Below are positions 56,440-60,300 of a stretch of 64,000 nucleotides of DNA, in pieces. The stretch covers positions 5,534,065 to 5,598,064 of the forward strand of contig OZ018416.1 in assembly GCA_963969595.1 (NCBI GenBank). Direction: 5' to 3'. Position 1 is the first letter of the stretch. The number at the start of each line of letters is the position of its first letter. The notes under the pieces are model-generated. The model saw only the letters and a program-made list of their open reading frames with translations. It made no database searches and was not told where the DNA came from. The DNA is from Neckera pumila. Taxonomy: Eukaryota > Streptophyta > Bryopsida > Hypnales > Neckeraceae. The translations under genes were made by a program, and so were the position numbers.

Positions 56440-57362
56440 GTGCATATTGCTGCGGTGAAGCCAGGGACCGGCTACAATAGCGTTGAATTTGCGGATGATT
56501 TCTATCACAGGTCTGTTATTGCCTGCAAATTGCGTGATTGTCCGCGCAGTAGGTTTGTGCGATGCTGTTCGGTGCTGCGTCGCTTTGGCACTGAATTTAT
56601 TCTCAACTGAAGTAGCGGTCGTGATTTTCACGTCTTCATAGAGCCGCGTTTAGGACAAACATTAATTATTCCCTTCTCAATTGCGGTCGCTGTCCACTGC
56701 ACCATTGGAAGTGTTCTGCACGTAAATTATTTCTCCATGATTTCTATGGCCATCTCGTTTCTCTGAGCGCTTGTGGAATGGCGTCGCATATATATCTAGG
56801 ATATGTTGTAATTCTCGGAGAACTACCATGACCTGAAAACTGATATGAAGTTGCAGCAGTATTGATCACTTTGTTTAGGTGCGGATTGGATCCTTCGGAG
56901 TATCGTTGGTGGATCTGGAGCTATTGGAATTGGAGCTGGACATTGAGAATGGCTATGGCAGGAGGAAATCAGGTGTAAAATTACACATGGAATCCATTTG
57001 AATTCATTTGCGCGCAAATTTGTTTTTCCGAGGCTTTCTTTGTCTTTTTTTTTTCTATGAGCCCTTGCAAAATGGTAGGAGGGACCGATTGGTCCTTCTC
57101 ACTGTTCTTGGTTCTTGTGGAGTTCTCGTTAGGGTTTGTGCTTGGAGTTTGACAGTGGGCAGGAGGAATTTAGGCGTCGGGTTTGCGATTACAATGTGAG
57201 TGAGGTGCATCGTCGTGCTAAGCATTGGTTTTGCATCAGGTTTTCGCGTAAGCGTGCAGGATGGGTAATAAATTGGCCGGAACGACACAAGCGGAGTATT
57301 ATTTGCACGATTTGCCTTCTTCCTACAACTTGGTTTTGAAGGACGCCCTAGGAGGTAGCCGG
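56440..57362 (+). repeat. Inverted duplicate of VPS15 promoter, leader and exon 1 start
   Basis: It matches the minus strand of 47207-48330. Near the start codon both copies share TTGCATCAGGTTTT, CGTAA.CGTGCAGG and ATGGGTAATAAATT. Coding similarity continues for about 33 codons (EYYLHDLPSSYNLVLK in both) and stops at GGAGGTaGCCGG, position 57362. Relative to VPS15 it lacks about 215 bp corresponding to 47600-47815. It supplies the presumed promoter, leader and start codon of the downstream PPR gene. Confidence 0.9.
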
Positions 57363-60300
57363 GGTAGATATTTATACCCAGTTGCAGGGACTTTGAGTGG
57401 GCGGAATAAGTTTAGTGACATTTTTCGTGGTGATGAAGATAGTCACGGTATAAAAGGTTTGGCAATGGTGTCCACCAAGCCTGAAAGCGTTGTTGCAACA
57501 AAGAAAGTTCGTAATGATGGCCAAGAAGAAGCAATTAGAGAAGCTATGGCAGCCTTCATGGAAATGGATAGTTTGAATGCCCCCAAAGTCCCAAACGATA
57601 TACGAGTAAAGAAGGTGAAATTTAGGGATTCAGTTCAGAACGGAGAGGACATACTGGAGAATAAGATAAATGCTGGAGCGGATATCCAAGAAGAGAAGGA
57701 TGTACGTAGTGAGTGTGTGTCGATGGAAACCAGTGGCCGCGACGGTGCTAACAAGATTGCAGCCCAAATTGCAAACGAAGTTTTCTCTGGAAGACCCAAA
57801 TTGGAAAGAGATAGGGGGGAAATTTCTGCACAGAACATAATAAAAAGGGCAGAATATCTCATTGCAGACTCTTGTTTAAATGTAAGCCTCCTTGGCGCTG
57901 CAGTTCCCTCTTTCTCTGCTGCGGTTTAAAAATTATCTGGCATTTTTTGTCGGGCTACTGATGGCGCATTTCATCCCTTCATATGATTTGGACAAAGCTC
58001 TTTGGTCCAAGATTGACCCTGTTTGTTTTGGGACTTAAACTTTTTTCCTACATTCACGTGGCCGCGCAGGAACAGTGGAATGCATCCACTGCAAAGAATA
58101 TACGTGAGAAGGAATGGCTGAAGCTCTTGGCAAGCGCGCAGCAAGCACAGTGTACAGAAACCAAGTCTGATAGAGTCCAGCTAATTTTGCAACTTCTAGA
58201 TATGATGTATGACAGCGGGACAAGAGTGAACGCGATGCACATCTGCGCTGCGGTCACTGTACATTTCTTCTCTTGTCCCTGAGTGTCTGGACATGTTGTT
58301 GAACTGCTGGATACTCGTTGCATCTGATCCATCTTATGGCCTTGTCAAAACCGTGGCATTATTTAGCTGAAAAATTTCTTCCCTTTGTTGTGGCAAATGT
58401 GTGACTAAATTGAGTGTGGCTTTGGTTGTGTTTGCAGCAGTTGTTTGAACTTATCAGTTTTAACCATGCGCCGTTTTCAGAATTCCATCTTGGAGTCCTC
58501 GACTGTCTTGTATTCGGATTGTAGGCAGTTGTCTTAAAAGGTCACCGTATCGCAGGCATGTGTGAACGAGAAGGCGCTGGACATAGCAGAGCGAATAGTG
58601 GACAGAGCTCGTGCCACAAACGAGACTTCAGTCAATGTGTTTGTGTATTCGAAGCTTTTGCAGGGTTATTGTTTCTCGAATCAACGAAAGGAGGCGTTTG
58701 CGCTGCTTGCTGTATGTACCTGTCATTCCTCTGAAACTTGCATCTTGGCTTCTCTATGCGTCCGCGTTTGTGTTACGTTCCTCAAACTAGGAGTGTACTC
58801 AAGTAAGACGTTTTATTTTTTGGCCAGTATGTTTTCCCACTCATCAACTGATATTGATTAGTTAGCTCTCTTGTAAGCCTAAAGTTCCTTTTTGATTCTG
58901 AGCCTGGTTCTGAGCATAGTATTATATATTGAGCTTAGTTCTGACCACCGTATTATATTCAACGTGTCGGTGACTTTTTATCTTGATTCTTCTCTTATTC
59001 TGTGGCTAGAGACGCCATGTTATGTTTTCCCGGGCCTGGAAATACTTGTTCGTGTCACAGATTTGCAAAAATATACTCAACGCAGTCACAACGGAGTGAG
59101 GATATTTTTCCAGAGAACAAATCACCTTTCCTTTATTCGTGACAGAAAATGGATGCAGAAGGAGTGAAGCACGATGTTGCCATCTACAACACCCTAATCG
59201 AAGTATATGATCTAACCTATCTCGACAGTGAAAGTTGCCTATTATTGCGATGTCTGATTTTTCAGAGGCTCCTCGGAGTTGATGTTAAATATCCTGAAAA
59301 TCTTCCTGCGGACGTTTTTCAAATTCTAATATGATAATTGCTACCTGTTATCATACTGAAAGCAGTTGAAAAGTAGAGAGTACACTGAAGTTTAGTATCC
59401 GATGCTCTAGTGAGATCTTGTCGCATTTCACATTTTGACACAGGAGAACGCACTTTACATCCCAGTGGTCTTTATGAAGGTTTTTGCGTCTCTTATATTT
59501 TTGACCTGCAATCTCTTTGACAGACTGAGCAAAGTCCCGAAGGTGTTGAAATTCTGTGGAGGGAACTGGAATTTCGTGCTATTCAGCCTAATGATCGGAC
59601 TTACTGGTAATGGGTTAAACTCCGTCCCTGTTAAACCATCTCCTGGTTCTTGGGCTCAGAGGATGTTGTAACTGAATTCCTGCATTAAGTTGAAAATATT
59701 TAGTTCGATTGGTTATATGAGTTAAAGCACTTTTCCTTTAGGCAACGAACAAAAGTACACGCGCATAGAGGGTTTCTCGCATCCAGTCAAATCTGAACCT
59801 AAATGCGTCAATATATTGACCGTTCTGAAAATACCGAAGCAACTCGATTTTCCTGTATTACCTGAACCATTACGCACACCGTATATTTGATTGCAAGATT
59901 GATTTTGGAAAACAGAGTTCTACAGTCAGATCTGGCTACGGAAGTAACACTTGTCGCAAATGTGGACAGTGGCGCAATCAGGTGTTATGGGCGAGCTGGC
60001 CTGCTCGGTGCAGTACGTAATCTCTGGCACGATATGGCCGCAAAAGATGTAGCCTGTACAATATTCACTTTCAATTCTCTTCTTGATGGTATGTTTGGAG
60101 TTTTCTGGTCTGCGTCATATTTTTAATTCGTTTGCTCTCATCCTAATTTTTAGTGAACTTAGGTACCACTCTTTGAGATTTGAGCTTTGATTCCCTTAAG
60201 TTTAGTGTTTCAAGAGCCGTCTGTATCATCTTGGACTTTTATCGTATACCTCTTAGGCATCAAAGGCAACCAAGCCTTACCGAGGCATGGGTTTTGATTT

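What the first reader, a model, noticed from the sequence alone, without database searches (positions are those of the whole stretch)
56440..57900. PPR gene has captured the promoter and first codons of VPS15
The PPR gene starts with about 33 codons of VPS15, including MGNKLA and YYLHDLPSSYNLVLK. About 0.8 kb upstream is also homologous to the VPS15 upstream region 10 kb away in opposite orientation. The reading frame runs on into PPR-specific sequence in the same exon. This looks like a young chimeric gene. An organelle-type RNA-binding protein would gain housekeeping expression and a potential N-myristoylation signal, and lose its transit peptide. The homology is seen directly; the functional consequence is inference.
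Basis: partly seen in the sequence, partly recalled or inferred. Interest (0 to 1): 0.9.

Follow-up and report, generated by a model that had tools for sequence, protein, structure and literature searches.

The report
Old moss PPR–VPS15 chimeric gene
In mosses, a gene for an RNA-binding protein of a family normally sent to organelles begins with a borrowed copy of the promoter region and first codons of the membrane-trafficking gene VPS15, and related mosses show that this fusion is old and has been kept rather than being a recent accident.

Summary
A PPR gene (+, ATG 57261; 21 exons, 997 aa, no internal stop, ending beyond the window) begins with 34 VPS15-derived codons (57261-57362) and 818 bp of VPS15-type flank (56443-57260). 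The donor is the head-to-head, complete VPS15 gene (ATG 47317, -; 18 exons, 1778 aa). Homology stops abruptly at 57362 and the frame runs on. Searches of the 339.5 Mb genome found no third copy. The chimera is not young: Ceratodon, Physcomitrium and two unnamed sequences carry the same N-terminus and junction, while the Sphagnum and Diphasiastrum representatives do not. It most likely arose once, after the Sphagnum split and before the Ceratodon/Physcomitrium split. A myristoylation-type start is kept in 5 of 5 complete chimeric N-termini. The two copies here are too similar for that age (noncoding K 0.18-0.23, against a published Niphotrichum-Physcomitrium Ks of 0.68; synonymous sites alone, Ks 0.37, do not reject it). 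I infer later gene conversion across the 10-kb inverted repeat, or else strong promoter constraint. Myristoylation, loss of organelle targeting and borrowed expression remain inference.

The parts
57261..57362 (+). 34 codons derived from VPS15 exon 1 (MGNKLAGTTQAEYYLHDLPSSYNLVLKDALGGSR), first part of PPR exon 1; a 9-bp in-frame deletion relative to VPS15
   Evidence: 90% DNA identity to VPS15 47317-47207(-); Ka 0.053, Ks 0.366 over 34 codons; amino-acid alignment with orthologues
56443..57260 (+). Captured VPS15-type 5' flank (putative promoter and 5'UTR) upstream of the PPR gene
   Evidence: BLASTN and global alignment to VPS15 48327-47318(-): 81% (distal) and 84% (proximal) of ungapped columns, K2P 0.225 and 0.180; no third copy found in the genome
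57363..57881 (+). Rest of PPR exon 1, PPR-specific, in frame with the VPS15-derived codons; ends at a GT donor
   Evidence: 38% identity to VPS15 in the first 52 aligned bases after 57362; homologous to exon 1 of chimeric moss orthologues
58070..63987 (+). PPR gene exons 2-16 (58070-58258, 58556-58711, 59146-59202, 59524-59606, 59970-60088, 60311-60478, 60662-60804, 61187-61273, 61661-61786, 62062-62149, 62253-62330, 62637-62743, 62945-63006, 63511-63546, 63840-63987); five more exons lie beyond the window, stop at L005:2164
   Evidence: corrected splice model of 997 aa without internal stop; 19 of 20 introns GT-AG, one GC-AG; splice sites set to agree with the orthologues aligned
47120..47317 (-). 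VPS15 exon 1 (donor), codons 1-66; codons 1-37 (47207-47317) match the PPR gene
   Evidence: 18-exon, 1778-aa model without internal stop; PDB and database matches
47318..48327 (-). VPS15 5' flank (donor), containing about 222 bp absent from the PPR copy and an internal repeat (48242-48100 and 47781-47626)
   Evidence: three-way comparison of the repeat copies
57020..57049 (+). 30-bp block identical in both flanks (TTGTTTTTCCGAGGCTTTCTTTGTCTTTTT)
57111..57138 (+). 28-bp block identical in both flanks, holding TTAGGGTTTG
56531..56560 (+). 30-bp block identical in both distal flanks
57253..57274 (+). 22-bp block over the start codon identical in both genes

Best explanation
In a moss ancestor, after the split from Sphagnum and before the Ceratodon/Physcomitrium split, a copy of the VPS15 5' end (at least 0.8 kb of flank plus the first 37 codons) was joined in frame to the first coding exon of a P-type PPR gene. 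The chimera replaced the old PPR 5' end and has been kept since (supported by orthologues with the same junction). In the window's lineage the captured stretch, which faces its donor as an inverted repeat 10 kb apart, was later homogenised with VPS15 by gene conversion (inferred from two copies too similar for their age). The gene is most likely driven by a VPS15-type promoter and makes a PPR protein starting MGNxL[AG], which can be N-myristoylated like VPS15 (inferred). Subclaims: single old capture 0.93; translation from the VPS15-derived ATG 0.85; homogenisation rather than constraint or recapture 0.55; myristoylation and a cytosolic or membrane-bound pool 0.45.
For: Local anatomy. The only other place found with this N-terminus in the genome is VPS15 itself. 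Orthologues: P0001 Ceratodon (74% over 84% of the query), P0002 Physcomitrium (62% over 99%), P0172 and P0173 share the N-terminus, and P0174 the junction (VLKEGRGGGR|GRYLYPV); in all of them the VPS15-like part ends at the same GGxR position, followed by xR[YH][LI]xPV, which argues for one event. Sphagnum P0004 and Diphasiastrum P0005 lack it. PROSITE-type myristoylation pattern (recalled) at the start in 5 of 5 chimeras with a complete N-terminus and in 0 of 2 outgroup PPR proteins. No internal Met in the first 100 or so residues is shared by all five; the first shared by four of five is at 96-99. The 9-bp deletion keeps frame; 4 nonsynonymous and 7 synonymous differences, Ka/Ks about 0.14. 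P0172 joins exon 1 to exon-2 sequence with the intron missing (21 of 22 tail residues match), so the chimeric exon appears to be transcribed in a relative. Homogenisation: noncoding K 0.18-0.225; 44 of 277 and 89 of 463 differences are far too few for K 0.68 (binomial P 2e-24 and 7e-31); 0.68 is the rate-adjusted divergence peak of Niphotrichum against Physcomitrium in PMC10619864 (whole section 7 read). In overlapping 50-column windows identity is 72-94% in 32 of 34 windows up to 57362, 60-62% in the two at the 222-bp gap, and falls to 38% after the junction.
Against: Synonymous sites alone do not reject K 0.68 (7 of 24; P 0.09); the noncoding excess could be promoter constraint. The Ks yardstick comes from other species and a rate-adjusted genome-wide peak. 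An internal repeat in the VPS15 flank (76% between its copies) is older than the VPS15-PPR identity there (82%), yet one copy is missing from the PPR flank, so homogenisation of the whole tract in one step is not the simplest reading. The place of the window's species relative to Ceratodon and Physcomitrium is unresolved (best tree joins it to Ceratodon, support 69/63; AU p 0.13 and 0.21 for the alternatives). No expression or localisation data for this species. The P0172 isoform is frame-shifted in exon 2. Physcomitrium's N-terminus has few acidic residues and could serve as a presequence. Outgroups are 2 gene models whose starts may be mispredicted; no Takakia, Andreaea or Polytrichum sequence was seen.
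Confidence: 0.6

Rival explanations
1. Old chimera without gene conversion: the captured promoter, 5'UTR and N-terminus stay similar to VPS15 because the same regulatory and coding constraints act on both copies.
For: Three identical blocks of 28-30 bp, one with a TTAGGGTTTG motif, and a 22-bp block over the start codon; Ka well under Ks.
Confidence: 0.27
2. Second, independent capture in the window's lineage: the old chimeric 5' end was replaced again by a fresh VPS15 copy.
For: VPS15-like N-terminus here (88% to its own VPS15, 65% to Ceratodon's chimera) and low noncoding K.
Against: The junction is the same as in Ceratodon, Physcomitrium, P0172, P0173 and P0174; a new insertion would hardly hit the same codon unless guided by homology, which is gene conversion.
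Confidence: 0.1
3. The VPS15-derived residues were turned into (part of) an organelle presequence, so that the PPR protein is still imported into plastids or mitochondria.
For: PPR proteins are nearly always organellar (established knowledge, recalled); Physcomitrium's N-terminus has only 2 acidic residues and 12 S/T in its first 60, and Ceratodon has a basic amphipathic stretch at 39-56.
Against: Four of five chimeras keep 5-7 acidic residues in the first 60, and 5 of 5 a myristoylation-type start; composition is no test of targeting.
Confidence: 0.35
4. Young, species-specific chimeric gene.
For: High identity between the two copies in this genome.
Against: Same N-terminus and junction in other mosses.
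Confidence: 0.03
5. Gene-model artefact: translation starts at an internal ATG and the VPS15 piece is only untranslated leader.
For: Start sites are not mapped here; internal Met at residues 69, 96, 100 and 102 exist in this species.
Against: Frame, start and motif conserved in 5 of 5 complete chimeric N-termini; a 9-bp rather than frame-breaking deletion; the residue-69 Met is absent in P0172, Ceratodon and Physcomitrium, though present in P0173 and P0174.
Confidence: 0.06

Closest known systems
VPS15 / PIK3R4 (PI3-kinase class III regulatory subunit)
   Same: Donor of the 5' flank and N-terminus; the MGN start is VPS15's; VPS15 is known to be N-myristoylated and the myristate acts as a switch in its own pseudokinase domain (review PMC12275124, passages)
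   Different: The Pfam scan of the chimera found PPR families only, none of the kinase, VPS15-helical, HEAT or WD40 domains found in Physcomitrium VPS15, so it lacks the pocket that holds the myristate in VPS15
P-class PPR proteins (PF13041, PF01535)
   Same: Body is a PPR repeat protein, orthologous to Sphagnum and Diphasiastrum PPR proteins
   Different: Start is VPS15-derived and myristoylation-type instead of an ordinary presequence; no close angiosperm orthologue was among the 51 hits, which scored only the 7996 candidates sharing most words
Chimeric genes made by partial duplication that capture another gene's 5' end (jingwei, Sdic and plant examples; recalled, no call)
   Same: Same mode of origin: partial duplication of a donor joined in frame to another gene
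   Different: Old and shared by different moss lineages, donor intact 10 kb away in head-to-head orientation, and copies apparently homogenised

Membership tests
Chimeric gene by partial duplication of VPS15 | Homology to donor in coding and flanking DNA, ending at a sharp breakpoint | tested here: met
Chimeric gene by partial duplication of VPS15 | Reading frame continues from donor-derived into recipient-specific sequence | tested here: met
   orthologues
Chimeric gene by partial duplication of VPS15 | Polarity: donor state ancestral, recipient without it in outgroups | tested here: met
   114 of 120 listed VPS15 hits start MGN; Sphagnum and Diphasiastrum PPR representatives lack it; only 2 outgroup models
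Chimeric gene by partial duplication of VPS15 | Transcript includes the donor-derived exon | tested here: inconclusive
   P0172 looks spliced across exon 1/2 in a relative; none for this species
Young gene (restricted to one species or genus) | Absent from related lineages | tested here: not met
   Present in Ceratodon, Physcomitrium, P0172, P0173
PPR protein | Tandem PPR motifs | tested here: met
   PF13041 5 stretches, PF13812 3, PF01535 2
N-myristoylated protein | G2 and permitted residues at following positions (PS00008, recalled) | tested here: met
   5 of 5 complete chimeric N-termini
N-myristoylated protein | Lipid attached in the cell | not testable with these tools
   needs NMT assay or proteomics
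Organelle-imported PPR | Cleavable presequence directing import | tested here: inconclusive
   Composition and hydrophobic moment only
Gene-converted repeat pair | Copies within a genome more alike than their age allows | tested here: inconclusive
   Noncoding yes, synonymous sites alone no; no relative's DNA available

The most novel reading that the evidence does not exclude
For the whole time since before the Ceratodon/Physcomitrium split, mosses have kept an N-myristoylated, non-organellar PPR protein whose promoter and lipid anchor were borrowed from VPS15, and recurrent gene conversion across a head-to-head inverted repeat keeps the promoter of an RNA-binding gene in step with that of the PI3-kinase regulator, so that both are expressed and anchored alike.
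Probability: 0.25. Interest if true: 0.8.

Novelty: new variant of a known kind. Interest (0 to 1): 0.6.

Why it matters
PPR proteins are the textbook organelle RNA-binding family (recalled). One that has carried a VPS15-derived, myristoylation-type start across moss lineages would be a rare, relatively datable case of a chimeric gene that relocated, or could have relocated, a member of that family to membranes. Physcomitrium, a genetic model, carries it, so the question can be tested directly. The too-similar copies also offer a clean test of gene conversion between promoters.

Tried and rejected
First splice model (1061 aa) had four wrong acceptors, a false 30-bp exon and an exon 19 two bases too long; orthologues showed this and one search corrected it. 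The first protein search and alignment A2 used the wrong model; its first 368 residues, used for A3, are unaffected, and identities leave out gapped columns.

Absolute dating rejected: with the 9.4e-9 rate quoted in PMC9247546 (passages), Ks 0.68 would give only about 36 million years for a split of which one side, the Funariales, is put at about 172 million years in PMC1952061 (passages), so only relative depths are used.

Shared residues of Ceratodon and Physcomitrium (TAQ, and S where VPS15 has L27) first looked like proof of conversion here; P0172 and P0173 do not share them and Marchantia VPS15 also has TAQ, so I treat them as weak. Gene adjacency in other mosses could not be read: no Ceratodon VPS15 among the 120 listed hits, no contig for P0002. 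In Sphagnum the locus tags put VPS15 on 15 (S. fallax) and PPR on 04 (S. magellanicum), different species, so only a hint that they are unlinked. Amphipathicity and composition did not settle targeting. Literature: 0 papers held name the four orthologue identifiers searched, and searches listed 11 and 10 papers, none of whose titles or abstract starts describes such a chimera; nothing else was searched for it.

Full report
What is there. The window is contig C9:5534065-5598064 of an unnamed 339.5 Mb genome in 18 contigs; the closest named protein relatives are mosses, so I take it as a moss (inference). On the minus strand lies a complete VPS15 gene: ATG 47317, 18 exons, 1778 aa, no internal stop, 83% identical over its full length to Physcomitrium VPS15; 7 of 8 matched PDB sequences are PIK3R4 or VPS15. 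On the plus strand, head to head and 10 kb away, lies a PPR gene: ATG 57261, 21 exons, 997 aa, no internal stop, with its last five exons beyond the window; Pfam finds PPR repeats.

The observation. DNA from 56443 to 57362 aligns to 48327-47207 of the opposite strand. In ungapped columns the distal part is 81% identical (K2P 0.225), the proximal noncoding part 84% (0.180) and the coding part 90%. Similarity falls to 38% in the 52 aligned bases after 57362, so the breakpoint is sharp. The frame runs on through 57881. The PPR copy lacks 9 bp in frame. The genome search returned only this place and the VPS15 5' region, and protein searches with the PPR exon 1 and with the VPS15 start found this N-terminus only at these two places (the latter also lists weak kinase matches elsewhere that do not cover the N-terminus). 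These searches score only their best candidates.

Is it young? No. The protein search with the PPR protein returned 51 proteins. I take the first five as orthologues from score and co-linearity: Ceratodon P0001, Physcomitrium P0002, an unnamed P0003 (begins at an internal Met, so silent on the start), Sphagnum P0004, Diphasiastrum P0005. Ceratodon starts MGNELARTAQVSASECYLRDLPSSYNSVVKGGAGGGR and Physcomitrium MGNALGGTAQVLASEYYLHDLVASYSSVSKRSLVGGR; Sphagnum and Diphasiastrum start quite differently (these are cluster representatives, other members were not inspected). A search with the N-terminal alignment gave 4 proteins at E up to 1e-9: P0172 and P0173 carry the full chimeric start, P0174 begins just inside it and shows the junction, P0175 is a VPS15 fragment. 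In all chimeras VPS15-like sequence ends at GGxR and is followed by xR[YH][LI]xPV. One junction in all argues for one event. A tree of the PPR body sets this gene, Ceratodon, Physcomitrium and P0003 apart from Sphagnum and Diphasiastrum with 100/100 support. A published moss tree places Physcomitrium outside Ceratodon plus Niphotrichum, and Sphagnum outside all three (input tree of PMC10619864, passage); Funariidae, Dicranidae and Bryidae are separate lineages of the Bryopsida (PMC6445109, passages; that Physcomitrium is in the first and Ceratodon and Niphotrichum in the second is recalled). So the capture lies between the Sphagnum split and the Ceratodon/Physcomitrium split. The order among this species, Ceratodon and Physcomitrium is not resolved (over 735 PPR-body columns identities are 82.9% to Ceratodon and 77.0% to Physcomitrium, and 79.0% between those two).

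Too similar for its age. A moss genome paper gives a rate-adjusted Ks of 0.68 for the divergence of Niphotrichum and Physcomitrium (PMC10619864, whole section 7). If the capture is at least that old, neutral DNA of the two copies should have diverged as much. Instead noncoding K is 0.18-0.225 (44 of 277 and 89 of 463 differences; binomial P 2e-24 and 7e-31 under K 0.68), Ks 0.366 (7 of 24.2 sites; P 0.09, not significant) and Ka 0.053. I read this as homogenisation with VPS15 in the lineage of this species and P0172, in the direction VPS15 to PPR since VPS15's own first 37 residues equal those of Sphagnum fallax. Constraint on a shared promoter is the main rival. A complication: an internal repeat of the VPS15 flank has copies 76% alike, the PPR flank is 82% like one and 72% like the other, and it lacks the second copy, so conversion must have been patchy or the PPR flank lost a copy.

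How it may work. Shown: conserved start and frame, in-frame deletion, no internal Met shared by all five chimeras in the first 100 or so residues, and one apparently spliced transcript of a relative that joins the chimeric exon to exon 2 (P0172; intron missing, 21 of 22 residues of its tail match a shifted frame of exon 2). That isoform is frame-shifted, so it suggests transcription, not the main product. Inferred: VPS15-type expression from the captured flank, and N-myristoylation. VPS15 itself is N-myristoylated and its myristate is held in, and released from, its pseudokinase domain (review PMC12275124, passages); the Pfam scan shows no such domain in the PPR protein, so a myristate on it would be free to bind membrane. 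Not settled: whether the protein still enters an organelle. Acidic residues in the first 60 are 7, 5, 5, 5 and 2 for this species, P0172, P0173, Ceratodon and Physcomitrium, 2 in Sphagnum and 5 in Diphasiastrum; this is suggestive at best, and Physcomitrium looks the most presequence-like.

Verdict. A real, old, conserved chimeric gene, a new variant of a known kind of event.

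Noticed in passing
window 54777-55204: A repeat of about 430 bp with many genomic copies: 39 other places at 91-94% identity among the 40 candidates scored, of 5035 first-look candidates; one lies about 5.8 kb beyond the PPR gene at C9:5606054. A short dispersed element between VPS15 and PPR.
   Followed up: partly
window 52567-52610 and 55216-55259: 44-bp inverted repeat, 98% identical, 2.6 kb apart, inside the VPS15-PPR interval; no target-site duplication obvious by eye.
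   Followed up: partly
window 49980-51001: Two direct copies of about 470 bp, 73% identical, upstream of VPS15.
   Followed up: no
window 63007-63510: The PPR gene has one GC-AG intron.
   Followed up: no
window 55912-56031 and 56230-56342: A 69% direct repeat just upstream of the captured VPS15 flank.
   Followed up: no
P0172: The sequence joins exon 1 to a point 17 nt upstream of the expected exon 2 start, shifting the frame: probably alternative splicing of the chimeric gene in a relative.
   Followed up: partly
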